Counted from the first letter of the stretch, positions 5,612-47,744 are shown. The stretch is DNA of 64,000 bases from Sorangium aterium (GCF_028368935.1 NZ_JAQNDK010000007.1:496001-560000), one strand, 5' to 3'. Program-made: numbers and translations. Notes: generated by a model not told the origin, from the sequence alone.

Positions 5612-5618
5612 GGTGGTC

Positions 5619-30145: not shown

Positions 30146-30970
30146 TCAGGCGCCGTCGAAGGACTCGTCATCGTCGCCGGCAGCGGCCGGCGCGGCGTCG
30201 TCGTCGGTAGGCGCGGGCTCGGCCCCGCCCTCGGCGCCGCCCTTGCGACCGCGCCGGTCGGCCCGGGCGGACTCGCGGCGGAGCCGGCCGAGGAGGCGCT
30301 CGGCGATCTCCCCGGTCGCCGCCTTCTCGAGGGCGAGGTTCGTCTCGACGGCCCGGACCATGCGGATCCAGGCGTTGCGAGCGTTCACTACCTCCCGCGG
30401 CGTGGCGCCGTCGGTGTTCGACGGGGCGTTCAGCGCGAGCTGCTCACGCTGCGCCTCCACCTTCTCGATCTCGAGCGCGGCCGCGACCCAGGCGTCCACC
30501 ACCTGCGCGAGCGGCCCCTCGGGCGTCTTCAGCTTCCTGAGCAGCTTCTCCGACGCGTCGTCGAGCCGCGACCGGAGCAGCTTGGCGTCACCCGCCTGGT
30601 CGCCGTAGCTGCGCGAGACGGCCTTGAGCCCCGCCGGCGCGAGCCGGTCGCGCAGATCGAGGACCGCCGCCGCGAACGCGGGATCGTCGGTCATCTCGGC
30701 GAGCGCGCCGAGGTAATTGTACGCCCCGCGGAGCTTGCGATCGTGCGTGGCGTCGAGCGCGATGGCCTTCTCCATGAGCGCCTTCGCCTGCTGCTGAAGG
30801 CTGGAGCCGAGCCGCTGCGTGGTGAGGATCCGGCCGTGCGCCTCCTCGACCGCGGGCAGGAGCGGCGCGAGCAGCGGCAGCGACGTGAAGACCCTCCGAT
30901 CCTGCTCCGGGTCGAGCCAGGGGCCCGAGATGTTGACCATCGCTTGCGGGGTGAGATTGCGATAACCCAT
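30146..30970 (-). CDS. Hypothetical helical protein, 274 aa
   Basis: No family recognised. Almost entirely alpha-helical by composition. The N-terminal half begins MGYRNLTPQAMVNISGPWL, the middle holds long heptad-like stretches (LDDASEKLLRKLKTPEG, then EKVEAQREQLALNAP) and the C-terminal 35 residues are low-complexity (Arg/Lys, then Ala/Asp/Glu). There is no signal peptide, so it is cytoplasmic. The ATG at 30970 has a textbook AAGGAGGG ribosome site, so it is probably well translated. A structural or DNA-associated role is possible but unproven. Confidence 0.75.
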   Translation of the reverse strand: MGYRNLTPQAMVNISGPWLDPEQDRRVFTSLPLLAPLLPAVEEAHGRILTTQRLGSSLQQQAKALMEKAIALDATHDRKLRGAYNYLGALAEMTDDPAFAAAVLDLRDRLAPAGLKAVSRSYGDQAGDAKLLRSRLDDASEKLLRKLKTPEGPLAQVVDAWVAAALEIEKVEAQREQLALNAPSNTDGATPREVVNARNAWIRMVRAVETNLALEKAATGEIAERLLGRLRRESARADRRGRKGGAEGGAEPAPTDDDAAPAAAGDDDESFDGA

Positions 30971-31482: not shown

Positions 31483-32439
31483 TTGCTGCGTTCTGCGCTG
31501 GTCATCTGTTGGTCGCACGTGGCGGCCGTCGCGATGTTCCTCCTCGCGATCGAGCCAGCGTTCGCCGCGCAGCCGCCGCCGCGGTCGCCGCGCGTGACAG
31601 CCTTGATCAAGGAGGCTGAGGCCGCCCTGGAGCGGCTCGACGTCGCGCGCGCACGCGACCTGTGGGCGCAGATCTACGATATCGAGCGTTCTACGGTGGG
31701 GATCTGCCAGCTCGGGCAGCTCGACCGCCGACTCGGGCGCTGGGTGGACGCCGTGGTGGAGCTCACGCGCTGTGTGCAGGAGATGCGCCCGCCGGCCACG
31801 CCCAGGGAGCGGCGGCTCCACGAGACGCGGCATGCGGACCTGGCGGCGGCGCGGCTCGAGGTGGCGAGACTCCACGTGTTCGCGCCCGCCGGGGCGGCGC
31901 CCGTGCTCGTGGACGGGCGCCTCGTGGACGAGAGCGGTCAGATCTACGTGGCGCCCGGGCAGCATGAGATCACGACGATGTTGCCGGATGGCCGCAAGGC
32001 ACGCTCCATGGTGCACGTCACCGCGAGAGAATCGCGCGTTGTCCTTTTGAGCGCCGAACCGGCGAGCGTGCGCTCGGTCGCTCCGTTGAAGGCGACGCCG
32101 GCGGGCGCGCCGGTACGGCCAGCGAGCCCCCCGGCCCCGTGGCTGCTTTATACGGGGTCCGCGGCGTCGGGCGTATTCCTCGTGTCGGGGATCGTGCTGC
32201 ACATCTTGGCATCGACCGAGGACAGCGCCTTGAGGGAGGAGATGTGCAAGCCCGGCTCGGCGGAGGATCCGAAGTTGGTCGAGGACTTGCACGCCGTGGA
32301 GGTGCAGCAGCACATCAGCACGGCAGCCCTCGTTGCAGGTACCGCCCTGGGGGCCGCGACGGTCGCAATTGCGGTGCTGCCGCGCGGCGCCCAGATCCGC
32401 GCGAGCGCGGCTGGAGCAGAGGTGCGGTTCTCGTGGTAG
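31483..32439 (+). CDS. Exported TPR/PEGA-like membrane protein
   Basis: Exported protein of 318 aa related in layout to the gene at 6704. A signal peptide runs to about residue 29 (ending EPAFA). TPR-like helices follow (EAEAALERLDVARARDLWAQ, then GICQLGQLDRRLGRWVDA). A PEGA-like region holds VLVDGRLVDESGQIYVAPGQ. Two hydrophobic segments lie near residues 222-242 and 280-300. The start is a TTG at 31483 with CCGAGG upstream; no ATG or GTG fits. The stop overlaps the start of the pseudokinase by 7 nt, so both are in one operon. Confidence 0.72.
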   Translation: MLRSALVICWSHVAAVAMFLLAIEPAFAAQPPPRSPRVTALIKEAEAALERLDVARARDLWAQIYDIERSTVGICQLGQLDRRLGRWVDAVVELTRCVQEMRPPATPRERRLHETRHADLAAARLEVARLHVFAPAGAAPVLVDGRLVDESGQIYVAPGQHEITTMLPDGRKARSMVHVTARESRVVLLSAEPASVRSVAPLKATPAGAPVRPASPPAPWLLYTGSAASGVFLVSGIVLHILASTEDSALREEMCKPGSAEDPKLVEDLHAVEVQQHISTAALVAGTALGAATVAIAVLPRGAQIRASAAGAEVRFSW

Positions 32440-33857
32440 AGCCTGGTACCGTCTGGGAAGGTCACCGGATCCTCAACGAGGTTCACGACGGCATGGTCCG
32501 CACGTTCCTCGCCCAGCAGGTCGGCGATGAGGCCGCGATCGTCTGGTTGCACCTGCGCGAGGGGCAACCGATGGACCGGACGGCCTTCGCATCCGAGCTC
32601 CAGCGTCTGCAGGACATCGCGCGAGCGGTTCCTCAGGTAGAACCCGTTCTCTACGGTGACGCAGGAGGCCTCTCTGCCTGGGTCGCCTACCGGCGGAGCG
32701 ACAAGATTGGCCTCATGGACGCGATCCGCGGGGTGGATCTCGGGGTTACCGCGCTGCACACGGTAATCGAGGTCGCCCACGCCATCCAGCGGTGCCACAC
32801 GCTGGGCGGGTGCCATGGGGCGCTCGGGTCCGACCGCGTGTTCATCACATCGAAGCGGGACTACAGCATCAGCCAGTTCGGTCTGGTCGGGCTATTCCGT
32901 ATCGAGCCGCACGAGGCCGCGCGGGAGCCGCTGGTGGCGTCTCCTGAGCTGCTGCGCGGCGACCGAGTGAGGCCACAGACGGACGTCTATGGCCTCGGGA
33001 CGCTGCTGTACGAGCTCGTTTGCCGTCGGTCGCTCGACGTCGGCCAGCCAGGTATGTTGGGGGTGCGGCGCGGTAGGCCCGCGATCCCCGTCGACACACC
33101 GCCCGCTGTGGCTGCCGCCATCGAGATGGCCTTGGAAGAGGATCCGCGCCGCAGGTACAGAAACGTGGGCCACTTCATCGCGGTGCTCGAGGGCCTTGTG
33201 GACGCCTGGCCCACGCTGGACCGGGCACCGAGCCGGCGCGATAACCACGCGCCCGTCGCCGGCGCGGCGCCGTCGACCTTGCGCAGCTCCCATCTCCAGA
33301 GTCGTCGCTTGTCAGCGCCGGTGACGGAAGCTCCGGACACCCGGACGTCCGAGGTGGCGCCGGTGGCAGCGCCTTCGAGCGACGATGAGCATCAGCTGCC
33401 GCAGATCCCCCCTCTTGACGGACCATCGCCGACCGCTCCCGCTTCGAAAGAGCCGGTGACGCCACCGCCGCCCTCCCTCCGCCGAGAACCTGGAGGAGAG
33501 CCAATGATGGTCCGGAGCGACCCTGTCGCGGCGCCGCCCCACAAGCTGGTGAGGCGCCTTGCTATTCCGCTCGCCGCGACGGCTGCGCTGTGCGCCGGCG
33601 CTCTCTGCCTGACGCCCCCGGCGGGGATCGCGTCCCGCGCGGAGAAGCTTGGGACGATGCTGGTGGAGCGAGCATCGCCGCGGTCTGGGCAGCGGCGTTT
33701 GCCGTCGCCGGAAGGGGCGGCGAGGGCCGACTCGAAGGAAGCGGACAGCCGCCCGCGTGCTGCGTACACGCAACGAACGGGCGTGACGGCGAAGGCCGAG
33801 CTGCGCCGGCCGTACTGCGAGGCCGGCGATTTTAGCTGTGGTCCTGCGATGTACTAG
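32433..33857 (+). CDS. Membrane-anchored pseudokinase
   Basis: Protein of 474 aa with a Ser/Thr kinase fold but no catalytic residues. The beta-3 Lys position is Trp38 (AAIVWLHL), the HRD motif is HGA (residues 128-130, in CHGALGSDRVF) and the DFG motif is QFG (148-150). The APE-like ASPELL and the following TDVYGLGTLLYELV are kept, so the C-lobe fold is maintained. A Pro-rich linker leads to one transmembrane segment (about residues 371-388, AIPLAATAALCAGALCL) and a basic tail. The start is GTG, overlapping the upstream stop. It may act as a ligand-sensing scaffold, a role seen in other bacterial pseudokinases. That role is inference. Confidence 0.85.
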   Translation: MVEPGTVWEGHRILNEVHDGMVRTFLAQQVGDEAAIVWLHLREGQPMDRTAFASELQRLQDIARAVPQVEPVLYGDAGGLSAWVAYRRSDKIGLMDAIRGVDLGVTALHTVIEVAHAIQRCHTLGGCHGALGSDRVFITSKRDYSISQFGLVGLFRIEPHEAAREPLVASPELLRGDRVRPQTDVYGLGTLLYELVCRRSLDVGQPGMLGVRRGRPAIPVDTPPAVAAAIEMALEEDPRRRYRNVGHFIAVLEGLVDAWPTLDRAPSRRDNHAPVAGAAPSTLRSSHLQSRRLSAPVTEAPDTRTSEVAPVAAPSSDDEHQLPQIPPLDGPSPTAPASKEPVTPPPPSLRREPGGEPMMVRSDPVAAPPHKLVRRLAIPLAATAALCAGALCLTPPAGIASRAEKLGTMLVERASPRSGQRRLPSPEGAARADSKEADSRPRAAYTQRTGVTAKAELRRPYCEAGDFSCGPAMY

Positions 33858-33871
33858 GAGGGCTTCTGTCG

Positions 33872-34297
33872 ATGCGATGCGTTCTTCTGCTCATGGGCGC
33901 GAGCGCTGGGCTAGGTTGTGTCTCCGATCGCGGCTGTCCTGCCCCAGGCCCCCACGAGGGAGACCCTGCGGTATGGCTCTGGGATGGCACGCAGAACGAG
34001 GCGCCGGGCTGCGCGGAAGACAGGGATGTTCTCTGGGACGGGTGGTTGAAAGGCTCCTCTACCGCCCCGGAGTCGCCGACGTTCGCACGCGCCTGCGCCG
34101 GCGTCGTTCGAGACGACATCCCGGACGGGTATACACTCTGCGTGATCCCAACCGAGGTGCCGGAGATTTGCTGGGAGGGGTACGAGGACCGTTCCATTTA
34201 CGTGGAAGAAGATGGCGAAGAGCACGTGATGTGCTGCACCCCCGCGGGCAACCCGCCGATGGTGATCCCGCAGAGCTACGGCGCATGCACGACATGA
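33872..34297 (+). CDS. Small Cys-rich lipoprotein, 141 aa
   Basis: Probable lipoprotein: the signal peptide ends ASAGLGC (Cys near residue 16). The mature protein is acidic and rich in Cys and Trp (for example RGCPAPGPHEG, LWDGTQNEAPGC, EICWEGYED, VMCCTPAGNPP). I do not recognise the family. The start has AGGAGGG 12 bp upstream and lies 14 bp after the pseudokinase stop. The stop overlaps the next start as ATGA. It therefore belongs to the TPR-pseudokinase operon and is a candidate extracytoplasmic partner. Confidence 0.72.
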   Translation: MRCVLLLMGASAGLGCVSDRGCPAPGPHEGDPAVWLWDGTQNEAPGCAEDRDVLWDGWLKGSSTAPESPTFARACAGVVRDDIPDGYTLCVIPTEVPEICWEGYEDRSIYVEEDGEEHVMCCTPAGNPPMVIPQSYGACTT

Positions 34298-34785
34298 GCG
34301 ATCCGATGACAAATGCCCTCGCAGTTGCATTCTCATCCCTGCTCTTGGCTGCCGTGTGCGTCTCGTCCGGCGGATGCATCGCCCATCCCGAGATCTCGGG
34401 CAAGGCGGTCGTCACGCGGGATGGCGAAGAACTGGTGATCGACACCGGTGGCAACGGAACGAGGCTCGTGGATGCAAGCGGCGAGGTCGCAGGGGGGTGC
34501 ATCGTACCCAATCAGGGGAAACTCGGGGTAGCGGTGCAGAAGGAGGGCGCTGCCTTCTCGTTCTTTGATATGATGGACGAGTCCGACTCGCCTTATGCGT
34601 CCGTGACGATCGACGGAGAGCGTTACCAGGGCGCGTGCGAGATCATCGTCGAGGATCTGCAAGGTGACCCGTACGAGGCCGACGTGTCGGCGGGGCCGTG
34701 TGACCTCGTCCGGCTCTTCGACGGTGCAACGGTGCGCCTCGAGACGGCGGTATTTCACGTCTCGGACTGCAGCGGAGCCGATTAG
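34294..34785 (+). CDS. Small lipoprotein, 163 aa
   Basis: Probable lipoprotein with lipobox VSSGGC near residue 27. The mature part has beta-strand texture (KAVVTRDGEELVIDTGGNG, then VDASGEVAGGC) and four further cysteines. No family is recognised. I chose the ATG at 34294, which overlaps the previous stop (ATGA); an ATG at 34285 would add three residues. It is the last gene of the four-gene pseudokinase operon and converges on the gene ending at 34806, with a gap of only 20 bp. Confidence 0.7.
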   Translation: MSDPMTNALAVAFSSLLLAAVCVSSGGCIAHPEISGKAVVTRDGEELVIDTGGNGTRLVDASGEVAGGCIVPNQGKLGVAVQKEGAAFSFFDMMDESDSPYASVTIDGERYQGACEIIVEDLQGDPYEADVSAGPCDLVRLFDGATVRLETAVFHVSDCSGAD

Positions 34786-34805: not shown

Positions 34806-35960
34806 CTATCGCGCCCTCTCCGGCGGACCGTCGTCGGCCTGCGCCTTGGCTCGAGCAGCGCGGACCGCTGCGAGCCAGTGCGCCTGGTCGGGGTCGCTGT
34901 TCCACGGCGGGGCCTCCCGGTAGAGCGTGTCCCAGTACTCGCGCGCTGCCGCCTCGGCCGTCTCGATCTCGCTCTCGCCGTCGGGTGCGTCCTCGACGCG
35001 GTCCGCGAAGGCACGCCAGGGTTCAGAGGCGTGGTGGCTCAGATTCGGCCACGGCCGGCCGGGCGCCCCGTCGAAAACCTCACCGCTGCTCTGGAGATAG
35101 CTCTCGTAGGCGCTCTGAGCGATGGCATCGCGCCGGCGGCGGTTGACATGCCTCGTGCAACAATCACGAACCGCTTGGGCCCATTCGCGGTCCTCCTCCG
35201 GCACGTCGTCTCGCCATGCGCTCGCATAAAGATCGCGCATCTCCTGCTGGCGTGTCAGCCACCCATGTCGATCGTCGGGGACCGGCGGTGCTCGGAGGGC
35301 CTGGTCGCGCGCGGCGCGGAGGGCTCGCTCGCGCGCGGCGCTCGGTCCGGGGTACTCCGGCAGCCCGGCGCCCCAGTACCACGGCGGTTCCAGCATCGGA
35401 GGGATGGCCCTCTTCATCGAACTCGGGGTTCCGCGGAGAGCGAGCCGAAAACCCCGCTGGAAAGCGCGGAGCATCCCGGGCCGGTGCTGCTCGGCCGTGT
35501 CGTCGGAAGCAAGGGTCCGCCAGAGGTAGGTACGGTGGAGGCGCGAGGCTGCCGCGGCCGCGGCCTGTTCACTGTCGCTGGCGTGCGCTTCCTCGAACGC
35601 GTCAACGAAGGCGATGAACGCGCTCTCGAGGGCGGCGAGCAGCATTGGCCACGGCGGGGTGAACGCCCGGGGAATGTGCCCCTGGCTGCCCCGGAGAGCG
35701 CTTTCGCTGGCTCCAGGCTCTATGCCGTTCGGTCCCTGATCGTCGACCCACTTCCTGAAGCTCTCGCGGTGGGCCGCCGCCCATGCGCGGTCCCTCTCCG
35801 GCAAATCGTCGTACCACACTTCGGCGCACAGCTTGCCCAGATCCTCCGAGCGCGACCTCCATTGTTCGGGATCCTTGGTCGAGAACAGCGCGTGTCCGAG
35901 CGCCGCTTCGCGCACGACGCGAGGTACGAAGGGCTTCGTCTCCCCCAGCGAAGGGTTCAT
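34806..35960 (-). CDS. Internally duplicated soluble protein, paralog 1 (384 aa)
   Basis: Member of an unrecognised family with three copies in this window (also 36569-37690 and 39657-40793). It has no signal peptide. Two halves of about 130 residues are homologous to each other. The N half starts LCAEVWYDDLPERDRAWA and continues with TPPWPMLLAALESAF. The C half starts LYASAWRDDVPEEDREWA and continues with GRPWPNLSHH, ending DPDQAHWLAAVRAARAKA. The repeated core is A-x-W-x-D-D-(L/V)-P-E-x-D-R-x-W-A. Start ATG 35960, 61 bp after the stop of the gene at 36022. It is the last gene of the leftward operon and, unlike its paralogs, has no lipoprotein gene directly before it. Confidence 0.72.
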   Translation of the reverse strand: MNPSLGETKPFVPRVVREAALGHALFSTKDPEQWRSRSEDLGKLCAEVWYDDLPERDRAWAAAHRESFRKWVDDQGPNGIEPGASESALRGSQGHIPRAFTPPWPMLLAALESAFIAFVDAFEEAHASDSEQAAAAAASRLHRTYLWRTLASDDTAEQHRPGMLRAFQRGFRLALRGTPSSMKRAIPPMLEPPWYWGAGLPEYPGPSAARERALRAARDQALRAPPVPDDRHGWLTRQQEMRDLYASAWRDDVPEEDREWAQAVRDCCTRHVNRRRRDAIAQSAYESYLQSSGEVFDGAPGRPWPNLSHHASEPWRAFADRVEDAPDGESEIETAEAAAREYWDTLYREAPPWNSDPDQAHWLAAVRAARAKAQADDGPPERAR

Positions 35961-36021
35961 GAGCAATCTCCGGGTTGACCGCACGTGGGGTCGGTGGGCT
36001 CTACGCCCGTCAAGGTCATAC

Positions 36022-36594
36022 CTACCAGAAGATTCGGCCCGCCGCTGCGGGCTCGACGCTGACACCCGACCACGCGAGCGTCGTGATGAAGCGGACACCG
36101 CACGTCGCCACGATCGCCACATGCTGCGTCGATAGATAGGCCGCGCCGGCCTCCATGGCCGGGAAGAACCCAAGATAACGCAGGCACAACCCCCATGCGT
36201 TGCATACAGGGATGCGCCCGAAGTCGAGCCGCGCCGCGAGCTCGAACGACAGGGGTGCACGGAACGGCATGCCCCGGACGGCCGCCGTGGGGCCGGTCAG
36301 CACGCCGAGCCAGCGCGCGTCGCCGCCCAGACCGAAGAGGCCCACGTCGGCGCCGATGCCGATGTCCACGGCGTTGCGGACGGGCCATCGGCGCAAGCCG
36401 GTGACCGACGGCATGATGCCGCCCGTCGCGCGCGTGGCACGCGACCCCAGCACGACATAGGTCGCCTTGACGTCGATCTCCCAGCGCGGCGGCGCGCCCT
36501 CTTCTGCCCGCGCGACCGCGGGCAGGAGCGACAGCGCGACGAGCCCGGCGCGCGACCCCGTCCGAGCGCTACCTGCCCATCGCCCGTGGACCAT
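36022..36594 (-). CDS. Exported protein, possible outer membrane barrel, 190 aa
   Basis: Exported protein with a signal peptide of about 30 residues (core AGLVALSLLPAVARA). The mature part alternates hydrophobic and glycine-rich strands (VDIGIGADVGLFGLGGDARW, then LSFELAARLDFGRI), which suggests a small beta-barrel or beta-sandwich. Function unknown. The start at 36594 overlaps the end of the upstream paralog (36569) by 26 bp, so it is co-translated within the leftward operon of the duplicated family. Confidence 0.6.
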   Translation of the reverse strand: MVHGRWAGSARTGSRAGLVALSLLPAVARAEEGAPPRWEIDVKATYVVLGSRATRATGGIMPSVTGLRRWPVRNAVDIGIGADVGLFGLGGDARWLGVLTGPTAAVRGMPFRAPLSFELAARLDFGRIPVCNAWGLCLRYLGFFPAMEAGAAYLSTQHVAIVATCGVRFITTLAWSGVSVEPAAAGRIFW

Positions 36595-37690
36595 CGTCGG
36601 CCTGCGCCTTCCTTCGAGCGGCGCGGACCGCCGCAAGCCAGTGCGCCTGGTCGGGGTCGCTGTCCCACGGCGGGGCATCCCGGTAGAGCGCATCCCAGTA
36701 TTCCCATACTGCTGCTTCGGCCGTCGCCGGCTCGCTCTCGCCCTCGGGGGCGTCCTCGATGCGGTCCACGAGAGAATACCAGGGTTCCTTGGCGAAGGTG
36801 CCCACGCTACGCCACGGTCCAGCAGGCTCGCCGCCGAAGCGCCCATCGCTGCTCTGGAGATAGCCTTCATAGGCGCTCTGCGCCAGGGCAGTTCGCCGGC
36901 GGTTGTTGACCCACAGAATGCACGTGTCACGGTACAGCGCTGCCCAGAGGCGGTCCTCCTTAGGCACGTCATCTCGCCATGCGCTCGCATACAGCGCTCG
37001 CAGCTCATGCTCGCGTGCCGCAAGCTCCTTCGCATCGTCCGGAACCGGCAGCGCCCTGAGGGCCCGCTCGCGCGTGGCGCTCGGACCGGGAAGCGCAGGC
37101 GCCGCAATCTCCCAGATCGCGGGAGGCTCCAGCATCGGGTGGATGGGCCTCGTCAGCGTCCTCGGTCTCCCGCGGCGTCCGATCCGAAAACCCCTTCGGA
37201 AGGCGCGTAGCGCGTCGACTCGGTGTTCCTGGGGCGTGTCGTCGGATGTCAGCGTTTGCCAGAGATAGCTCCTGTGGAGTCGCGACGTTGGATCCTCCGC
37301 CGCACGCTCGCTCGCGCCGGGGCGCACCTGTTTGGCGGCCTCGATCATGGCAAAATAAGCGCTTTTGACGGCCTCCAGCAGCATGGGCCAGGGTGGCGCG
37401 GGCTCTCCGCCGAAGCGGCCATGGCGGCTCTGGAGATCCGCCGCATTCGCCTTGTAGTCGGTGTCAGCGTGTCCGGAATCGTCAATCCACCTGCTGAATT
37501 TCTTGCGGTACGGATCTGCCCATTCGCTGTCTTCCTCGGGCAGGCCATCGTCCCATGCCTCTGCGCACAGCTGGCCGAGATTCTCGAGGTGCCATTTCCA
37601 GAGATCGGGGCTCTTGGTGGTAAACAGGCCGTATCCGTAGCCTGCCTCCTGCACTGCAAGCATTCCAGGGCGCTTCGCCAGCCACCTCAC
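36569..37690 (-). CDS. Internally duplicated soluble protein, paralog 2 (373 aa)
   Basis: Second member of the two-repeat family. The N half carries LCAEAWDDGLPEEDSEWA and the C half LYASAWRDDVPKEDRLWA, followed by AYEGYLQSSDGRFGGEPAG and a terminal DPDQAHWLAAVRAARRKA. The frame is open further upstream, but the GTG at 37690 overlaps the stop of the lipoprotein gene (GTGA) and gives the same N-terminal layout as the copy at 39657. Coupling to a lipoprotein gene is the same in both. No enzymatic motif is visible, and function is unknown. Confidence 0.75.
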   Translation of the reverse strand: MRWLAKRPGMLAVQEAGYGYGLFTTKSPDLWKWHLENLGQLCAEAWDDGLPEEDSEWADPYRKKFSRWIDDSGHADTDYKANAADLQSRHGRFGGEPAPPWPMLLEAVKSAYFAMIEAAKQVRPGASERAAEDPTSRLHRSYLWQTLTSDDTPQEHRVDALRAFRRGFRIGRRGRPRTLTRPIHPMLEPPAIWEIAAPALPGPSATRERALRALPVPDDAKELAAREHELRALYASAWRDDVPKEDRLWAALYRDTCILWVNNRRRTALAQSAYEGYLQSSDGRFGGEPAGPWRSVGTFAKEPWYSLVDRIEDAPEGESEPATAEAAVWEYWDALYRDAPPWDSDPDQAHWLAAVRAARRKAQADDGPRAMGR

Positions 37691-38361
37691 GGCCGATCTC
37701 CCGGCTGTCCGCCCGTCGGGTCCGTGGGCTGTCCGCCTGTCGGGTCCGTGGGCGTGGGCGGGCATCCCCAGCCTGGTCCAGCGCCGAGCGGGCAGAGGAG
37801 AGGGACGAGCCGAGGAAAGGCCCATCCAGGAGGCGGAGCGGGTAGTGCGATCAGGGTATTGATGATGTCGTCTGTGTCGACCGCGTCGGGGTCCGTCAGC
37901 TTGGCCGGTACCTTGTCCGGTTCGTAGCGGAAGTCCCATACGAACCGGCACTCGACGGTCGCTCCGCCCGGGATCGGCAGGCTATTCATGAGGTCGGTTT
38001 TTCTGATTTGACGCTGCAGCGCTTCCCATTCGTCCTTGCACATCAGGTAGGTCACCAAGAAAGGTTCCTCGATGAGACAGGCGCGCATGTCTTGGACAAT
38101 ATAGGACGGCTCCTGGTCGGCCCACTCGGTCCACTGACCGCCAGCTTGGTAGCGGCACTGGAGTTTGCCCATTTGATCTCCCGGTGGCCTGCCCTGAAGC
38201 CAGTCGAGGGCCGCGGCGTTCATGGCTAACCTCGTGAGCCTCGATATTTCTTCGAGTGGCATTGCCGCGATCTGGTGTCTCAGCTCATCGCGATCGCTGG
38301 GATCCACGATGGAGCAGCCGCAGGCAAACACGACGAGCAGAACGCCGCGCCGATGATTCAT
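37687..38361 (-). CDS. Paired lipoprotein, copy A (224 aa)
   Basis: Lipoprotein with a short signal peptide and lipobox FACGC, followed by SIVDPSDRDELRHQIAAM. It is a clear paralog of the protein at 38968: both share CSIVDPSDR, QMGKLQCR or QVGKLQCR, VECRFVWD, RYEPDKVP or RYEPEKVP, and the tail LVPLLCPLGAGPGWGCPP followed by PTDPTGG repeats. Several conserved cysteines suggest disulfides in the periplasm or on the surface. It is first in a leftward operon and overlaps the soluble paralog 2 by GTGA. Function unknown. Confidence 0.78.
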   Translation of the reverse strand: MNHRRGVLLVVFACGCSIVDPSDRDELRHQIAAMPLEEISRLTRLAMNAAALDWLQGRPPGDQMGKLQCRYQAGGQWTEWADQEPSYIVQDMRACLIEEPFLVTYLMCKDEWEALQRQIRKTDLMNSLPIPGGATVECRFVWDFRYEPDKVPAKLTDPDAVDTDDIINTLIALPAPPPGWAFPRLVPLLCPLGAGPGWGCPPTPTDPTGGQPTDPTGGQPGDRP

Positions 38362-38967
38362 CGGTTTCCCCTCCCCTGGTTCGCCGATCCACGTACCCGT
38401 AGACGGTGGCCGACCTTACCAGCGGTCGCCACCGCCGGTCAAGCCGTGACGGGCCACCTGGAGGACGGTGACCGGCGCCCAAGCGCGGCCACTGGCCGGG
38501 GCCTCGCCTTTGAAGAAGTGGCAGTGACGGTGCCGAACCATCTGCCCAACATCGCCGGGTCGAGGAAGCCCGCCCGAACCGCCTTTCACCAGCAGCGCAG
38601 AGTTGCGCCGCTCCTTCGAGCGCGGCTCCGCGAACGCTCGCGCCGCTCGACCTGGGTTGAGAGGGCACCACGCGCTCGGCGCCGTCCACCGCGGAACTCC
38701 GGCTCCATCCGCCCCGGGTCTCGACCGAAATATGACCCCGTGGGCATTTTTTATCGCTCCGGCCTCTGGCGATATCGTCCCAGGCGTAAGCGTCGGGTTT
38801 GGGGCGATGGCGATGCTCTGGCGCAGGCGTGAAGCGCGGTCCTCTCTTGCCCGTGCGAGCTCGCTCAGGAACAGCGACGCCCGCAGGTGCGCATCGGGAG
38901 GCGCGGCGCGGGGACTGGGCGCGCGGATGGCTTGATGCTCACCGCCTCTCCATGGAATCCTACGTGC
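38362..38967. other. Divergent control region between the paired-gene operons
   Basis: 606 bp between two divergent lipoprotein genes, so it should contain both promoters. It holds the left copy of a 70-bp element (38693-38762). Just inside that element a GTG opens a 30-codon frame (38740-38832) matching the start of the lipoprotein gene at 40871 for only a few codons, so it may be a truncated gene start. No other gene is supported. Confidence 0.5.
38693..38762 (+). repeat. 70-bp direct repeat, left copy
   Basis: Aligns without gaps to 40824-40893, with 57 of 70 bases identical by hand count. The best core is CGCCCCGGGTCTCGAC. The two copies bracket the lipoprotein-plus-soluble-protein pair at 38968-40793. 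In both, a start codon (GTG here, ATG at 40871) falls at the same position. Confidence 0.8.
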
Positions 38968-39660
38968 ATGAAGCTGCTCCTGAAGGCCATGGTGGCCGCT
39001 GCGGTCACCGTGATCGCCCTTGGCTGCTCGATCGTGGACCCCAGCGACCGTGAGGAGCTGAGACAACAGATCGCGATGCTGCCGCCCGAGACGCTGTCGT
39101 CCTGGGATAAGTGGAACATGAATGTTAACGCGGTGAAGTGGCTCAAGCTATACAAGGACCCGAATGATCAGGTGGGCAAGCTCCAGTGCCGGTTGAAGGC
39201 CGGCGGCACCTGGAGCGGCTGGAACGACCAGGAGCCGACGTATACCGTCGCCGACTTGCTCGACTGCCTCCTCGAATCAGGAGATATCGCCGTAACCTAC
39301 ACGATGTGTGCCGACAAACTTCAAGCCGTGGACGGCAAAAACAGGGAGAGCAAGATCTTGCGTGAGGAACAGGTGCCGGGGGTGACGAATGTCGAGTGCA
39401 GGTTCGTTTGGGATTCCCGCTACGAGCCGGAGAAAGTGCCGTCCAACCTGACGAACCCCAGATCGATCACAGTCGACGAGCTGATCGACTGGCTGATCTC
39501 GCTCCCGGCGCCGCCTCCGGGATTTGCTGCCCCTCAGCTCGTCCCGCTCCTCTGCCCGCTCGGCGCTGGACCAGGCTGGGGGTGCCCACCTCGGCCGACG
39601 GACCTTCCGGGCGAGCAACCCACCGACCCGACGGGCGGTGAGCCAGGGGATCATCCATGA
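38968..39660 (+). CDS. Paired lipoprotein, copy B (230 aa)
   Basis: Lipoprotein with signal peptide and lipobox VIALGC near residue 20, followed by SIVDPSDREELRQQI. Paralog of copy A on the other strand, with the same Cys positions and the same Pro/Gly tail (PLLCPLGAGPGWGCPP, then PTDPTGGEPGDHP). The ATG at 38968 is chosen because the signal peptide begins there. The stop overlaps the start of the soluble paralog at 39657 as ATGA, so the two proteins are made in step. Role unknown; a partner relation between the lipoprotein and the soluble protein is inferred from the conserved coupling. Confidence 0.78.
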   Translation: MKLLLKAMVAAAVTVIALGCSIVDPSDREELRQQIAMLPPETLSSWDKWNMNVNAVKWLKLYKDPNDQVGKLQCRLKAGGTWSGWNDQEPTYTVADLLDCLLESGDIAVTYTMCADKLQAVDGKNRESKILREEQVPGVTNVECRFVWDSRYEPEKVPSNLTNPRSITVDELIDWLISLPAPPPGFAAPQLVPLLCPLGAGPGWGCPPRPTDLPGEQPTDPTGGEPGDHP

Positions 39661-40793
39661 AGCTGAAAACGTCGCGCGTGTGGTTCCTTATGCGGCGCAA
39701 CGAGGTCGAGGCGGGCACGGCGAGTCACCTATTTTCGCCCCAGGATGCCTTGGGTCGGAACATGGACCTCGAGACCCTGGGCAGGCTGTGCGCCGAAGCA
39801 TGGCACGACGACCTGCCCGAGGCGGACCGCGCATGGGCCGAGGCGCATCGTGAGAAATTCGGGAGGTGGGTCGACGATTCGCGGCCCGAGGCCATCCGCC
39901 CGAGGGTGGACGCGGGCTCTCCCGAGAGCCTCACGGGCAGGTTCGACAAGGAGCCCGCTCCGCCGTGGCCGATGCTGCTCGAAGCCGTCAAGAGCGCGTT
40001 TTTTGCGTTCGTCGTCGACTTCGGGCAGACGGTCGAGGGCGAGGGCGAGGGCGCGACGGGCGATCCGACAGCGCGCCTCCACCGGACGTCCGTCTGGCGG
40101 GCGCTGGCGGTCGACGACGCCCCCGAGGTGGACCGGCCCTCGGCGCTCCGCGCCTTTCGGAGGGGGTTTCGGCGCGGGCGCCGCGGGCTCCCGAGCTCCA
40201 TGACGAGGCCCATCGCCCCGAGGCTGGAGCCTGCGCGGTTCTGGCCGGTGAATACGCTGCTCCATCTCCCTGGGCCGAGCGCGGCGCGCAACCGAGCCCT
40301 CTGGGACGCGTCGAGTCACTGCACGGATACCAAGGAGTACCGGGCGCTCCTGCAGGAACTGCGCGACCTCTACGCGAGCGCCTGGCGAGACGACGTGCCG
40401 GAGGAGGACCGCGAATGGGCCGAGTCCTACCGCCACTCCTGCATGAACGAGGTCAACCGTCGCCGGCGAGACGCCGTGGCCCAGAGCGCTTACGAGGGCT
40501 ATCTCCAGAGCAGCGATGGGCTCTTCGACGGAGAGCCCGCAAGGCCGTGGCCGAACCTGAGAGGCTACGACTCGGACCCATGGCGTGCTCTTGTGGATGC
40601 GGTCGAGGACGCGCCCGAAGGCGAGAGCGAGCTCGCGACCGCCGAGGCGGCAGCGCGCGAATTCTGGGACTCGCTCTACCGGGAGGCCCCGCCGTGGGAC
40701 AGCGACCCGGCCAAGGTGCACTGGCTCGCGGCGGTCCGCGCCGCGCGACGAAAGGGGCTGTCCGGCGATGTTCCGCCGGACGGCGGGGCGTAG
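39657..40793 (+). CDS. Internally duplicated soluble protein, paralog 3 (378 aa)
   Basis: Third member of the two-repeat family, on the plus strand. N half: LCAEAWHDDLPEADRAWA, then PAPPWPMLLEAVKSAFF, then LHRTSVWRALAVDDAPE. C half: LYASAWRDDVPEEDREWA, then ARPWPNLRGY, ending KVHWLAAVRAARRKG. The start (ATG 39657) overlaps the lipoprotein stop. There is no signal peptide or catalytic signature. The sequence is rich in Trp, Arg and acidic residues with regular helix periodicity. It is probably a cytoplasmic binding protein. Confidence 0.76.
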   Translation: MKLKTSRVWFLMRRNEVEAGTASHLFSPQDALGRNMDLETLGRLCAEAWHDDLPEADRAWAEAHREKFGRWVDDSRPEAIRPRVDAGSPESLTGRFDKEPAPPWPMLLEAVKSAFFAFVVDFGQTVEGEGEGATGDPTARLHRTSVWRALAVDDAPEVDRPSALRAFRRGFRRGRRGLPSSMTRPIAPRLEPARFWPVNTLLHLPGPSAARNRALWDASSHCTDTKEYRALLQELRDLYASAWRDDVPEEDREWAESYRHSCMNEVNRRRRDAVAQSAYEGYLQSSDGLFDGEPARPWPNLRGYDSDPWRALVDAVEDAPEGESELATAEAAAREFWDSLYREAPPWDSDPAKVHWLAAVRAARRKGLSGDVPPDGGA

Positions 40794-40893: not shown

Positions 40894-41509
40894 TGGGATC
40901 GTTTTCTCCATGAAGAGCGCTCGCGCGCTTGCGCGCGCCGCCGGGGTGCTCGGCGCCGTGCTCTGCGCCGCGTGCGCTGCAGACCCCGAAGCCCCGCCGC
41001 CCGAGATCTCGGTCGGCACGGTCGACGGCACGGACGCCGTGCTCGCCCTCGTGCGCGGCGAGGGCTCGGTCACGCTCTACGTCCGCGGCGGCGTGAGCAG
41101 CTACGCGACCATGACCCGGTGGTTCGAGGGACCCGAGGAACCGAGCGGCGCGTTCTCGCTCGAGAGCGACGGGTGGACGGCGACCGCCGATGCGGGCGGC
41201 GAATCCGGACGGCTGCGCACGCCCGAGGGCGCGGAGCTCGCCTTTCGCGCGCGCCCGGCGGCGCTCGACCGCATCGAGGGCCTCTACGCGGCGGTCGACG
41301 GCGGCTGCCGCACCGGCGCCGTCGTCTTCACGCCCGATGACACCGACACGCCCGCGCTCCAGGGCACCTGGTGCGGTGCCGGCGATCTCTATGCCCAGGT
41401 GACGCCGATACGCCCGCTGTCGGTGCTCGATCGGCGCGGGATCGAGGTGCAGGTCGAGCTCAGCGGCGCACGGAAGAAGCTGCTCGTGACCCCGCTCGTG
41501 CGGCCCTGA
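40871..41509 (+). CDS. Hypothetical lipoprotein, 212 aa
   Basis: Probable lipoprotein with lipobox VLCAAC near residue 35. From the ATG at 40871 the N-terminus has an extra arginine-rich piece (MRFFRRSGGIVFS); from the ATG at 40910 (MKSARALARAAG) the signal peptide has a more usual length. The mature domain has beta-rich texture (EISVGTVDGTDAVLALVRG, then GSVTLYVRGGVSSY). No family recognised. It follows the duplicated pair by 77 bp and shares its upstream 70 bp with the left repeat copy. Confidence 0.65.
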   Translation: MRFFRRSGGIVFSMKSARALARAAGVLGAVLCAACAADPEAPPPEISVGTVDGTDAVLALVRGEGSVTLYVRGGVSSYATMTRWFEGPEEPSGAFSLESDGWTATADAGGESGRLRTPEGAELAFRARPAALDRIEGLYAAVDGGCRTGAVVFTPDDTDTPALQGTWCGAGDLYAQVTPIRPLSVLDRRGIEVQVELSGARKKLLVTPLVRP

Positions 41510-41655: not shown

Positions 41656-44391
41656 ATGGCGGACGCAGCTCGGCCGCGGAGGCGGCACCTTGCCCTGCCC
41701 GCGTCGCGCTTCATCGGCCGGGAGGGCGAGCTCGTCGCGATCGCCGGGCTGCTCCGGGGCGGTGAGCGGCTCGTCACCCTCTGGGGCCCGGCCGGCATGG
41801 GCAAGACGCGGCTCGCCCTGGAGCTCGCCAGCCGCTGGGCCGAGGCGCAGGCCGGCGAGGCCGTGTGGCTCTGCGAGCTCACCGCCTGCCGCGACCTGCG
41901 CGCCGTCTGCGGCGCGGTCGCGCGCGCGATCGGGGCGCAGGTCGCGGCAGGGCGCCGGGAAGCGACGCTCGTCGAGCGGATCGGCCGCGCCCTCGCGACC
42001 GAGGGGCCGGCGCTGCTCGTGCTCGACAACCTGGAGCACGTGCTCGAGCAGACCGCGCCGGCCCTCGATGCGTGGGTGCGCGCGGCGCCCGAGCTCCGCT
42101 TCCTCGCGACGTCGCGCGAGCGCACCCGCCTGGCAGGCGAGATCAGCTACGAGCTCGGCCCCCTCGGCCTCCCCGCGGAGGGCTCGACCGAGCGCAGCGC
42201 GGCCGTGGCGCTCTTCCTCGACCGCGCCGCGGCCCACCGCGCTTCCGCGCCGCCGCCGCCGCCCGGCGACGAGCACCTCGCCGACGTCGCCGCGCTGGTG
42301 CGGCGGCTCGAGGGCATCCCGCTCGCGATCGAGCTCGCGGCGGCGCGCGAGGGCGTGCTCGGCGTGCGCGGCCTGCTCGCGCGGCTCGGGAGCCGGCTCG
42401 ACCTGCTCGCGGGCGCGGCGCGCGGGAGGGAGGCGCGGCAGGCGACGCTGCGCAGCGCGATCGAGTGGTCGTGGGACCTGCTCGACGACCGCGAGCGACG
42501 GGCGCTCGCCTGCTGCTCCGCCTTCCACGGGCCGTTCACGCTCGCGGCGGCCGCCGCCGTGCTCGCGGAGCCCGACGCCGCCGCGATCGATCGGATCGAG
42601 GCGCTGCGCGACAAGTCGCTGCTCCGCGCGGCGCCCCCGAGGAGCGACGGGGCGACGCGCTTCGCGCTCTACGAGGTGGTGCGAGAGCTCGCCGCCGAGA
42701 AGCTCGCCGAGCGCGGGGAGCGCGAGGCCGCGATCGAGCGGCACGCGGCGTTCTACCTGGGCGCCGGCGAGGCGGCGGCCGCGGACTTCGAGCGGCGGGG
42801 CGCGCTCGACGCGCTCAACCGCATCGCCGGCGATCTGGAGGAGCTGCTCGCCGTCGCCGAGGGCGCGCTCGCCCCGGCGACGGCGCCTCGCGCCGGCGCC
42901 GAGGCGGCGGCCGAGCGCGCGCTGCGAGCGCTCTGCGCCATCGAGCCCGTGCTCAGCACCCGCGGGCCGTTCGGGGCGCAGCTCGAGCTGCTCGACCGCG
43001 CGCTCGCGGCCGCCGAGGCGCTCGCGGCAGAGCCGCGCGTGGTGGCCCGCGCGCTCGCGGCGCGGGGGCGCGCGCGGCGGCTACGAGGGCTGGCGGAGGC
43101 CGCGCTCGAGGACCTCGAGCGCGCCCGCGCGCAGGCGGCGGCGCTCGGCGCAGAGGCGCTCCTCTCGGGGATCCTCGCGGACCTCGGCGTGCTCCACCAC
43201 GGCCGGCGCGACATGCAGCGCGCGCGCGACCACTACGCGCAGGCGCTCGCGCTCCACCGCGCCCTCGGCGACCGCCGCGCCGAGGGGCGGGTGCTCGGCA
43301 ACCTCGGGGCGCTCCACCACGACGAGCGCCGGGAGGCCGAGGCCGCCGCCTACTACGAGCAGGCGATCGGGATCGCGGCGGAGATCGGCGACGGCCGGAT
43401 GGAGGGCATCTTCTCGACGAACGCCGGCCTGCTCGAGCAGGAGCGCGGGGCGCCCGCGCAGGCGCGCCGGCGCTACGAGCGCGCCGCCGCGATCCTCGGC
43501 GAGGTGGGCGATCTCCGGCTGCTCGCGATCACGCTCGGCAACCTCGGCGCGCTCCACCACGAGGAGGGGCGCCTCGCCGATGCGCGCGCGTGCCACGGCC
43601 GCGCGGTGGGGCTGCTCCGCGAGGTCGGGGACCGCCGCTCCGAGGGGATCGCCCTCTGCCGCCTCGGGGCGGCGCTCGCGTCGGTCGGCGCGGTGGACGA
43701 GGCGCGGCGCGCGATCGAGCCCGCGGAGCGGCTGCTCGCGCAGCTCGGGGACGAGCCCGACGTGGAGCTCGCGCGGGTGGCGTCCGGCTTCGTCGACCTG
43801 GCGCTCGCCCAGGCGGCGCGCCGCGCGGGGCGGGGCGAGGAGGCGGCGGCGCACGTGGGCGCGGCGCGGCGCAGGAGCGCGCGCGCCAGGGAGGGATCGC
43901 CGTCGAGCGCGAGCCGATCCGACGATGTGCGGCTGCTGCTCCGGATCCTGGAGCGCAGCCTGGCGGCGCTGGGCGGCCTGCCCGAGGCGCGGGCGGAGGG
44001 CGAGCTCCTCCTGACCGAGGGGGCGCGCTTCGTCCGCCCGCCGGGCGGCGGCTGGCACGACCTGCGCGAGCGCCACGCGGCGCGGCGCCTGCTGCACGCG
44101 CTGGCCGAGCAGCAGCGGTCTGCGCCCGGCCGAGGGCTCTCCCTGGCCGCGCTGAAGGAGGTGGGGTGGCCCGGCGAGCGGATCTTGCCGGAGGCGGCGG
44201 CGAACCGGATCTACGTGGCGATGAACCAGCTGCGGAAGCTCGGGATGAAGCCGTGGCTCCGGAGAGACGCAGAGGGGTACTCGCTGGATCCGGCGCTGCC
44301 GGTCCACTACGTCGCGGTGGAGCCGGCCGCGCGGGGAGGGGAGGATTCGCGCGGGGGGGAGACGGGCGAGGGCGGGGGGAAGCGGCGGTAG
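41656..44391 (+). CDS. STAND/NB-ARC ATPase with TPRs and C-terminal winged helix
   Basis: Large regulator of 911 aa of the AfsR/LuxR-like STAND class. The N-terminal NTPase has Walker A GPAGMGKT (Lys50), Walker B LLVLDNLEH (about 118-126), the RFLATSRE sensor region and RLEGIPLAIELAA, the GxP motif of NB-ARC-type domains. A long TPR superhelix follows, with repeats such as GRVLGNLGALHHDE and AITLGNLGALHHEE. The C-terminus (about residues 830-890: GLSLAALKEVGWPGE, then RIYVAMNQLRKLGM) looks like a winged-helix effector domain. Such domains usually sit at the N-terminus. It would integrate a signal through ATP-driven oligomerisation. The ATG at 41656 was chosen as the first start before the conserved SRFIGREGEL. 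Confidence 0.82.
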   Translation: MADAARPRRRHLALPASRFIGREGELVAIAGLLRGGERLVTLWGPAGMGKTRLALELASRWAEAQAGEAVWLCELTACRDLRAVCGAVARAIGAQVAAGRREATLVERIGRALATEGPALLVLDNLEHVLEQTAPALDAWVRAAPELRFLATSRERTRLAGEISYELGPLGLPAEGSTERSAAVALFLDRAAAHRASAPPPPPGDEHLADVAALVRRLEGIPLAIELAAAREGVLGVRGLLARLGSRLDLLAGAARGREARQATLRSAIEWSWDLLDDRERRALACCSAFHGPFTLAAAAAVLAEPDAAAIDRIEALRDKSLLRAAPPRSDGATRFALYEVVRELAAEKLAERGEREAAIERHAAFYLGAGEAAAADFERRGALDALNRIAGDLEELLAVAEGALAPATAPRAGAEAAAERALRALCAIEPVLSTRGPFGAQLELLDRALAAAEALAAEPRVVARALAARGRARRLRGLAEAALEDLERARAQAAALGAEALLSGILADLGVLHHGRRDMQRARDHYAQALALHRALGDRRAEGRVLGNLGALHHDERREAEAAAYYEQAIGIAAEIGDGRMEGIFSTNAGLLEQERGAPAQARRRYERAAAILGEVGDLRLLAITLGNLGALHHEEGRLADARACHGRAVGLLREVGDRRSEGIALCRLGAALASVGAVDEARRAIEPAERLLAQLGDEPDVELARVASGFVDLALAQAARRAGRGEEAAAHVGAARRRSARAREGSPSSASRSDDVRLLLRILERSLAALGGLPEARAEGELLLTEGARFVRPPGGGWHDLRERHAARRLLHALAEQQRSAPGRGLSLAALKEVGWPGERILPEAAANRIYVAMNQLRKLGMKPWLRRDAEGYSLDPALPVHYVAVEPAARGGEDSRGGETGEGGGKRR

Positions 44392-46245: not shown

Positions 46246-47744
46246 GTACGGACCGGTGGCCTGGGTAACGGTTCAGACCGGGAGCCTGGGTAGCACCCGG
46301 ACGGACCGGGAGCTTAGGTGACACATGTCGTAGAGGACCGGCGACGGAGGAGCGCCGGTGCCCTGGAAAGAGACATGTTCAGTGGACGAGAGGCTTCGAT
46401 TCATCGCGCAGGTCAACGAGTCGGACGAGACGTTCGCGGAGCTGTGCCGGCTGTTCGGCATCAGCCGGAAGACGGGGTACAAGTGGGTGGAGCGCTACGA
46501 GCAGGCCGGACCGAGCGGGCTGGAGGAGCGGCGGCCCGTGGCGCGCTCGTTCCCGCATGCGACGCCAGCGGCGCTCATCGACGCGCTGATCGAGCTGCGG
46601 AAGGAGCGCCCCACGTGGGGGCCGAAGAAGCTGCGTGCGCGGCTGGAGAGCCTGGGCGTCGAGGGGCTGCCAGCAACGAGCACCATCGGCGAGTTGCTCA
46701 AGAAGCACGGGCTGATCCGGCCCCGTCGGCGCCGCGTAGTGACGCCGACGACCGCGATGCCGTCGCCGCTGGCTCCAGCCGAGCAGCCGAATGACACGTG
46801 GTGCGCCGATTTCAAAGGGCACTTCGCGCTCGGCGACAGGACGCGCTGCCACCCGCTGACGTTGACGGACCAGGCGTCGCGGTACCTGCTCAAGTGCGAG
46901 GGCGTGGCGAAGCCGGACGAGGCCTCGGTGCGGCCGCACTTCGAGCGCGCGTTCCGCGAGTTCGGGCTGCCGCACCGCATCCGCTCCGATAACGGGCCGC
47001 CGTTCGCCACGATTGGCATCGGTGGGCTCTCGGCGCTCTCGGTCAGCTGGATCAAGCTCGGCATTCATCCCGAGCGGATCGAGCCCGGTAAGCCGCAGCA
47101 GAACGGCCGCCACGAGCGAATGCACAAGACGTTGAAGGCGGAGGCGACATCGCCGCCAGAAGCCAACTTGGCAGCGCAGCAGCGCGTCTTCGATCGGTTT
47201 CGGCACGAGTACAATGATCAGCGTCCGCACGAGGCGCTCGGCCAGAGGACGCCGGCTTCGCGCTACACGCCCTCGCGCCGCTCGATGCCGAGCAAGCCCT
47301 CGTCGCCGGAGTACCCGGACACGATGGCCATTCGACGCCTTGACGACCAAGGACGGATGCTGTTCGGGGGCGCGCAGACCACCGTCTCCTCACTGCTCGC
47401 CGGCGAGCCCGTGGGGCTGATTCCGAGCGCCGATGACGTCTGGGAGCTGTACTACGGCCCGGTTCTGCTCGCGCAGGTCACCCTGAAGAACAAGGAGCTG
47501 AAGCTGGCCAGGGCGCGGTGACCTGCGCGAACTCACGCCGGATCGTGAGAAGAGGCTCGTGTGTACCGCGACCACGGGGAGCGGTTCGTGTATAGATCCA
47601 GGCGGTCCGAGAAAGCGCGGCGAGCGTGTCGCGCCGACGAGGATCCGGTCCCTGTTTCCAGTCCTCCCGGAGCATGGGCCTGTAGCTCAAGGAAGTGTCA
47701 CCGCAGCTCCCGGTCAGAAGTGTTACCAGGGCTCCGCTCGTACA
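46246..47744 (+). mobile_element. IS481-family insertion sequence, 1,499 bp
   Basis: Complete-looking element. Its ends are matching inverted repeats: left 46260-46296 (CCTGGGTAACGGTTCAGACC, continuing GGGAGCCTGGG) and right 47695-47730, whose reverse complement is CCTGGTAACACTTCTGACC, continuing GGGAGCTGCGG. Weaker similarity extends to the outer ends. The left end has a second inner copy of the GACCGGGAGC motif. CCTG flanks both sides (46242-46245 and 47745-47748), a likely short target duplication. The element splits a unit of the 65-bp repeat array, and removing it restores a normal repeat junction. Confidence 0.8.
46358..47521 (+). CDS. IS481 family transposase
   Basis: Transposase of 387 aa catalysing cut and join of the element. 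The N-terminal helix-turn-helix (ELCRLFGISRKTGYKWV) is followed by an rve-type integrase core with the acidic triad near Asp151 (WCADFKGH), Asp211 (RSDNGPPF) and Glu253 (RHERMHKTLK), then ASRYTPS. The start is GTG at 46358 with a GGAGGAGC ribosome site. The frame is intact, so the element may be active. Confidence 0.92.
   Translation: MPWKETCSVDERLRFIAQVNESDETFAELCRLFGISRKTGYKWVERYEQAGPSGLEERRPVARSFPHATPAALIDALIELRKERPTWGPKKLRARLESLGVEGLPATSTIGELLKKHGLIRPRRRRVVTPTTAMPSPLAPAEQPNDTWCADFKGHFALGDRTRCHPLTLTDQASRYLLKCEGVAKPDEASVRPHFERAFREFGLPHRIRSDNGPPFATIGIGGLSALSVSWIKLGIHPERIEPGKPQQNGRHERMHKTLKAEATSPPEANLAAQQRVFDRFRHEYNDQRPHEALGQRTPASRYTPSRRSMPSKPSSPEYPDTMAIRRLDDQGRMLFGGAQTTVSSLLAGEPVGLIPSADDVWELYYGPVLLAQVTLKNKELKLARAR

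What the first reader, a model, noticed from the sequence alone, without database searches (positions are those of the whole stretch)
34806..40793. Divergent inverted duplication of a lipoprotein plus two-repeat protein pair
Two gene pairs face away from each other. In both, a small lipoprotein (37687-38361 minus, 38968-39660 plus) overlaps by 4 nt the start of a larger soluble protein (36569-37690, 39657-40793). Each lipoprotein is a paralog of the other, and the same holds for the soluble proteins. A third soluble paralog (34806-35960) closes the leftward operon. Strict coupling kept through duplication suggests the two products work together, possibly as envelope partner plus cytoplasmic partner. 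Myxobacterial SitA/SitI lipoprotein toxin and immunity pairs are one known precedent for such a layout, but no toxin domain is visible, so that is only a hypothesis. I recognise neither family.
Basis: partly seen in the sequence, partly recalled or inferred. Interest (0 to 1): 0.7.

Follow-up and report, generated by a model that had tools for sequence, protein, structure and literature searches.

The report
Phage-borne envelope gene pair, domesticated
In a soil myxobacterium, a lipoprotein and a small probable outer-membrane barrel protein, the same pair that temperate phages carry as cargo, occur as chromosomal gene clusters with a third cytoplasmic protein wedged between them, probably to control what gets through the cell surface (phages or rival cells).

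Summary
The genes and paralogies are as described, but the reading needs revision. The window lies in a Sorangium genome. Across Sorangium and a sister genus the cassette is lipoprotein-S-barrel (L-S-B). L and S do not always go together. S survives alone four times, each time beside traces of a deleted L; solC itself follows a 14-codon stub of an L gene. L-B without S, with the same 4-nt overlap, occurs on a complete-looking temperate myophage (beside the integrase), in a related Sorangium prophage, and on a second viral contig. L-B is therefore phage cargo, and chromosomal copies carry S at the L/B junction. No protein matches Pfam, NCBIfam, PHROGs, PADLOC or PDB. SitA membership fails: no escort or toxin domain, and the C-terminus is the most conserved part. 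The SitB/SitA/SitI part list remains a striking analogy, and TraAB is in the genome. Best guess: a phage-derived surface-exclusion pair kept by the host, with S as an added cytoplasmic partner. Anatomy and phage link are well supported; function is inferred.

The parts
37687..38361 (-). lipoA (L, left arm): lipoprotein, 224 aa, six conserved Cys besides the lipid-bearing Cys, Pro-rich conserved C-terminus
   Evidence: AlphaFold2 model of the paralog lipoB pLDDT 82
36569..37690 (-). solA (S, left arm): two-repeat all-alpha protein, GTG start, no signal peptide seen, 4-nt overlap with lipoA
   Evidence: model of paralog solB pLDDT 76
36022..36594 (-).
   Evidence: sub-threshold Pfam matches nearly all to OM barrels
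35957..36001 (-). remnant of an L gene: last 14 codons plus TGA (EPTDPTCGQPGDCS*), overlapping the solC start by 4 nt
   Evidence: best match to the L of G166 10.25 Mb, score 61 vs shuffled maximum 25; sequence
34806..35960 (-). solC (S): orphan S whose own L was deleted; kept under purifying selection (dN/dS 0.39 vs So0157-2)
38968..39660 (+). lipoB (L, right arm); arm absent at this site in So0157-2 and G167
39657..40793 (+). solB (S, right arm), 4-nt overlap with lipoB; no B or trace of B follows
38362..38967 (.). 606-bp divergent intergenic region; the two halves are not homologous; the left half resembles the upstream region at site I of So0157-2

Best explanation
L and B are a two-gene outer-membrane module that temperate phages of myxobacteria carry as lysogenic-conversion cargo, translationally coupled (4-nt overlap) and, in the one well-annotated phage, lying beside the integrase. 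Sorangium and a sister genus keep chromosomal copies in which a cytoplasmic two-repeat helical protein, S, sits between L and B (L-S-B). Probable action: L, a disulfide-rich OM lipoprotein, and B, a small OM barrel, assemble at the outer membrane and block or gate surface access, most likely adsorption or DNA entry of superinfecting phages. S is an added cytoplasmic partner or second line that can persist without its own L. Shown: anatomy, paralogy, the phage and prophage L-B loci, S between L and B in all intact L-S-B cassettes, repeated loss of L with S kept, purifying selection. Inferred: the direction phage to chromosome, the barrel fold of B, the disulfides and OM location, the L-B complex, the exclusion function, and any role of S.
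For: L-B without S: IMG/VR contig G491 (L 4977-5663, B 5660-6184 of L077) carries terminase, portal, head, sheath, baseplate, endolysin and, directly upstream of L, an integrase. Sorangium G167 contig C908 (L048) has L-B with the same 4-nt overlap, and its neighbours match G491's tail-end genes in the same order at 32-82% identity: a prophage relative. A second viral contig, G492 (L078), has L-B with a 4-nt overlap. L-S-B order holds in window, So0157-2, G167 site I, G151, G152 and G153. G491's endolysin lies elsewhere (L085 14873-16348), so L-B is not beside the lysis gene. L and B mostly evolve more slowly than S. Precedent: prophage lipoproteins exclude superinfecting phages in coliphages (PMC11893012).
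Against: No exclusion assay or expression data. No known exclusion family matches (PHROGs and PADLOC empty). The barrel fold of B rests on a signal peptide, a C-terminal aromatic residue and sub-threshold Pfam matches; a crude amphipathic-strand count did not separate B from shuffled sequence. The root of the L and B trees is unresolved, so S could have been lost by phages rather than gained by chromosomes. An all-cytoplasmic S is odd for a pure adsorption block. G492 gave no terminase match.
Confidence: 0.42

Rival explanations
1. A sitBAI-like competition cassette: L is an OM lipoprotein passed between cells by TraAB-dependent outer-membrane exchange, B helps its transfer as SitB does, and S is the cytoplasmic immunity protein.
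For: Same three-part list as SitB/SitA/SitI (PMC5562445), on a prophage as sitBAI is on Mx-alpha. TraA (696 aa, Cys-rich, SCNCCP motif) followed by TraB is in this genome. Orphan S with traces of a lost L arises repeatedly (solC/G164 sol2, own site II, G166 9.45 Mb) while no S-loss with intact L is seen among chromosomal cassettes, as expected for orphan immunity genes. S mostly evolves fastest. L has no Lys at +2 or Ala at +7 (the OM rule quoted in PMC5562445).
Against: L has no toxin or escort domain, is only about 205 aa mature, and its C-terminus is the most conserved part. Phages carry L-B with no S, so a lysogen would lack this immunity. No NCBIfam match and TIGR02269 absent from the genome. 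Outer-membrane exchange was not conclusively detected in S. cellulosum (PMC6372800).
Confidence: 0.23
2. A non-antagonistic envelope module (OM assembly, nutrient or signal uptake) with a cytoplasmic partner, passively picked up by phages.
For: Purifying selection on all three genes; no toxin, defence or phage-function match.
Against: Accessory distribution, repeated decay (L038, L039, L049), and cargo position beside a phage integrase do not suit a housekeeping role.
Confidence: 0.22
3. Reversed roles: S is an effector (leaderless, exported by another system) and L the periplasmic lipoprotein immunity protein, encoded first.
For: Lipoprotein immunity proteins exist for periplasm-acting effectors (general knowledge); L precedes S and they are coupled.
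Against: S stays intact where L is truncated or deleted; in G166 no intact L was found although one S is intact. No secretion adaptor domain found in S.
Confidence: 0.06

Closest known systems
SitB-SitA-SitI (Myxococcus xanthus, outer-membrane-exchange toxins)
   Same: Lipoprotein plus predicted OM barrel plus cytoplasmic protein in one operon with overlapping ORFs; prophage-linked; myxobacteria with TraAB
   Different: Order L-S-B instead of B-A-I; L lacks escort and toxin domains and is not polymorphic at the C-terminus; phage copies lack S; no sequence match to the models held in NCBIfam
Prophage superinfection-exclusion lipoproteins (Cor; Lpp of mEpimmI coliphages, PMC11893012)
   Same: Temperate-phage-encoded lipoprotein
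   Different: L is large (about 205 aa mature), Cys-rich, and in phages always with a B partner; no sequence relation detected; function untested; L lies beside the integrase in G491, whereas the Lpp genes lie among structural genes
Lambda bor/lom lysogenic-conversion genes (from general knowledge)
   Same: A phage lipoprotein and a phage small OM barrel expressed by the lysogen
   Different: bor and lom are separate, not a coupled pair; no sequence match found

Membership tests
SitA (sitBAI) | Lipoprotein with lipobox, sorted to the OM (no Lys +2, no Ala +7) | tested here: met
   Cys conserved in all complete L; +2 is S or T and +7 is not Ala in the aligned complete L proteins; the lipobox deviates from the classical consensus (..ALGC..ACGC..LPSC)
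SitA (sitBAI) | About 375-aa escort domain followed by a polymorphic C-terminal toxin domain (PMC8546572) | tested here: not met
   L is about 205 aa mature; C-terminus is the most conserved region; no toxin domain in Pfam/NCBIfam
SitA (sitBAI) | Present only with traAB | tested here: met
   TraA-like 696 aa with SCNCCP, TraB-like gene overlapping downstream in the window's genome
SitI | Cognate downstream cytoplasmic immunity gene that neutralises the toxin | not testable with these tools
   S lies downstream of L without a signal peptide; neutralisation needs an assay; no SitI/SUKH match
SitB | Type I signal, predicted OM barrel, overlaps sitA | tested here: inconclusive
   B has a signal peptide and barrel-like features and overlaps L by 4 nt in phages, but lies downstream, and no SitB sequence was compared
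Phage superinfection-exclusion / lysogenic-conversion gene | Carried by temperate phages or prophages outside the structural and lysis modules | tested here: met
   Beside the integrase of temperate myophage G491; in a related Sorangium prophage
Phage superinfection-exclusion / lysogenic-conversion gene | Expressed from the prophage and alters phage entry or host phenotype | not testable with these tools
   needs expression and plating assays
OM beta-barrel (B) | Signal peptide, C-terminal aromatic residue, amphipathic strands or barrel profile match | tested here: inconclusive

The most novel reading that the evidence does not exclude
A new class of myxobacterial surface-exclusion system: a phage lysogenic-conversion pair (Cys-rich OM lipoprotein plus small barrel) was domesticated and extended by a cytoplasmic two-repeat protein into an operon acting at two levels, surface block plus intracellular response, against phages or non-kin cells.
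Probability: 0.2. Interest if true: 0.75.

Novelty: new variant of a known kind. Interest (0 to 1): 0.55.

Why it matters
Three protein families without any database name are tied to a temperate-phage cargo module and to its chromosomal relatives. The part list (barrel, lipoprotein, cytoplasmic protein, prophage) repeats that of sitBAI, whose origin its discoverers call unclear (PMC5562445). If L-B is an exclusion module and L-S-B its domesticated form, it gives a testable route from phage lysogenic conversion to bacterial surface immunity or kin competition in Sorangium, whose outer membrane lacks LPS (PMC6372800).

Tried and rejected
DUF7380 (E 0.006, 2 of 13 S proteins) and TagF_N (0.064): below cut-off, small stretch, not found in other members; rejected as chance. 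RNase D-like hit in G009 (5e-4): the protein is an RNase D/HRDC-type protein by inspection and only a short stretch matches; chance. Foldseek found nothing under E 0.9 for either model; VIA-align best Z 6.0 (S) and 4.0 (L), in the range of common arrangements, so no fold assignment. PDB sequence profiles: none. INPHARED phages (L and B) and plasmids (S): none. Viral contigs for S: none. B traces downstream of solB, solC and site II S: none. PA14 search found fibro-slime-like proteins, not TraA; the SCNCCP motif did. Looking up site I in G165 and other Sorangium genomes failed for technical reasons. A recent inverted duplication was rejected by the non-homologous upstream regions.

Full report
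WHAT IS THERE. The window lies in a Sorangium genome of 13.5 Mb (G000:C7:496001-560000); a congeneric genome, G164, has exactly the length of So0157-2 (PMC3696898). The 4-nt overlaps are real. A sixth gene was missed: 36022-36594 minus, here B, 190 aa, with signal peptide and C-terminal Trp, between solA and solC.

CONSERVATION. In 184 genomes of the order, S was found only in Sorangium and in one sister genus of the family, g44; one further hit was judged spurious. L was found in the same two genera, and a profile search of 379 genomes of the phylum added none. B has clear matches only in those genera; three further weak ones (E 1e-5 to 4e-4, in G165, G156 and G050) were not followed up. Gene order in intact cassettes is L-S-B (window left arm, G164, G167 site I, G151, G152, G153), with another S after B in the window and G164. 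Site II cassettes (G164, G167) are L-S without B. In Sorangium the L/S overlap is 4 nt at all pairs with an intact L; in g44 it is a 1-nt gap and the S/B junction overlaps by 4 nt in G151 and G152.

L AND S ARE NOT INSEPARABLE. solC in the window is preceded by the last 14 codons and stop of an L gene (EPTDPTCGQPGDCS*), overlapping the solC ATG by 4 nt, as in true L-S pairs. Its counterpart in G164 has a decayed version of the same stub. The window genome's own site II copy (C2:808558) has lost L except about 11 nt before the S start. In G166 at 9.45 Mb, L is cut to about 35 N-terminal codons and S is intact. So S has outlived L several times, and the orphan solC is still constrained (dN/dS 0.39, against 0.40 for solA). 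No chromosomal cassette shows the opposite, S lost with an intact L; G150 is decayed throughout.

L AND B TRAVEL WITHOUT S IN PHAGES. Sorangium G167 contig C908 has L and B overlapping by 4 nt and no S. A scan of IMG/VR with the L alignment found two viral contigs; both hold L-B with a 4-nt overlap and no S nearby, and scans with L and B alignments including them found the same two loci. The 41.9-kb record G491 is a temperate myophage: terminase (E 2.8e-32), portal, major head protein, tail sheath, baseplate wedge, endolysin and a tyrosine integrase (E 3.5e-35) directly upstream of L. The genes beside L-B in Sorangium C908 match G491's tail-end genes in order at 32-82% identity, so C908 is a related prophage. 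L of C908 and G491 are about 61-65% identical, against about 40% to chromosomal L. The second contig, G492 (128 kb), is more distant; no terminase was found in it. Trees group C908 with G491 (100/100), and the chromosomal copies by genus; the root is not resolved because of long branches.

THE PROTEINS. S has two homologous repeats (HHalign probability 99.5; also within g44), and the model is all-alpha (pLDDT 76). L is alpha+beta (pLDDT 82) with six invariant Cys besides the lipid Cys. B has an invariant CN-x(3)-LC motif, and nearly all of its sub-threshold Pfam matches are OM barrels, but a crude strand count was not discriminating. No significant family or fold match exists for any of them (B was not modelled). 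pN/pS analysis shows constraint on all, mostly weakest on S.

ORIGIN OF THE TWO ARMS. So0157-2 and G167 have only the left-arm cassette at this site. lipoB and solB are about as far from lipoA and solA as from other Sorangium copies and are not placed with support. The upstream regions of the two arms share nothing. The divergent pair is therefore old paralogs side by side, not a fresh inverted duplication.

MECHANISM. Coupled phage genes for an OM lipoprotein and a probable small OM barrel, beside the integrase and away from the endolysin, are best read as lysogenic-conversion cargo. A common role for such surface proteins is to keep out superinfecting phages, for which prophage lipoproteins are a tested precedent (PMC11893012). 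Chromosomal L-S-B would be the domesticated form, with S as a cytoplasmic addition. The main rival is a sitBAI-like competition cassette: same part list, prophage link, TraAB present, and orphan S genes that look like orphan immunity. Against it stand the absent toxin and escort domains, the conserved C-terminus of L, and phage copies without S. I put exclusion at about 0.42, sitBAI-like competition at 0.23, a neutral envelope module at 0.22, and reversed effector/immunity roles at 0.06.

LIMITS. Only five other Sorangium genomes were available in the search; the two viral loci are metagenomic; B has no structure model because both jobs went to L and S; gene calls outside the cassette come from a simple composition-based caller of my own; G166 pseudogenes could include sequencing errors; naming g44 as Polyangium would be a guess.

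Noticed in passing
G000:C3:1023486 (locus L079, 298-2388 and 2385-3017): TraA-like receptor (696 aa, 70 Cys, SCNCCP motif, C-terminal hydrophobic tail) followed by a TraB-like gene with 4-nt overlap: the outer-membrane-exchange locus of this Sorangium.
   Followed up: partly
30146-30970 and L044:7493-8233: The gene directly upstream of the cassette in the sister genus is a homolog (31% identity, E 2e-15) of a gene about 4 kb from the cassette in the window, so the site may be ancestral to both genera. No family match.
   Followed up: partly
34285-34785 and 40910-41509: Two further lipoprotein-like genes of no known family flank the cassette on either side and are conserved at this site in So0157-2, with fairly high dN/dS (0.51, 0.58).
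   Followed up: no
41656-44391: Large STAND/AAA ATPase with tetratricopeptide repeats next to the cassette, 92% identical in So0157-2; missing next to the cassette in G167.
   Followed up: no
46382-47521: Transposase/integrase-core gene (by eye IS481-like) about 5.6 kb from the cassette.
   Followed up: no
32409-33857: Protein kinase-like gene (Pfam Pkinase E 7e-7, slightly under cut-off) with a long Pro-rich tail and probable membrane segment, conserved at the site in So0157-2.
   Followed up: no
L085 and L086 (viral record G491): Complete-looking 42-kb temperate myophage related to a Sorangium prophage; no match to its L or B in the INPHARED phage collection.
   Followed up: partly
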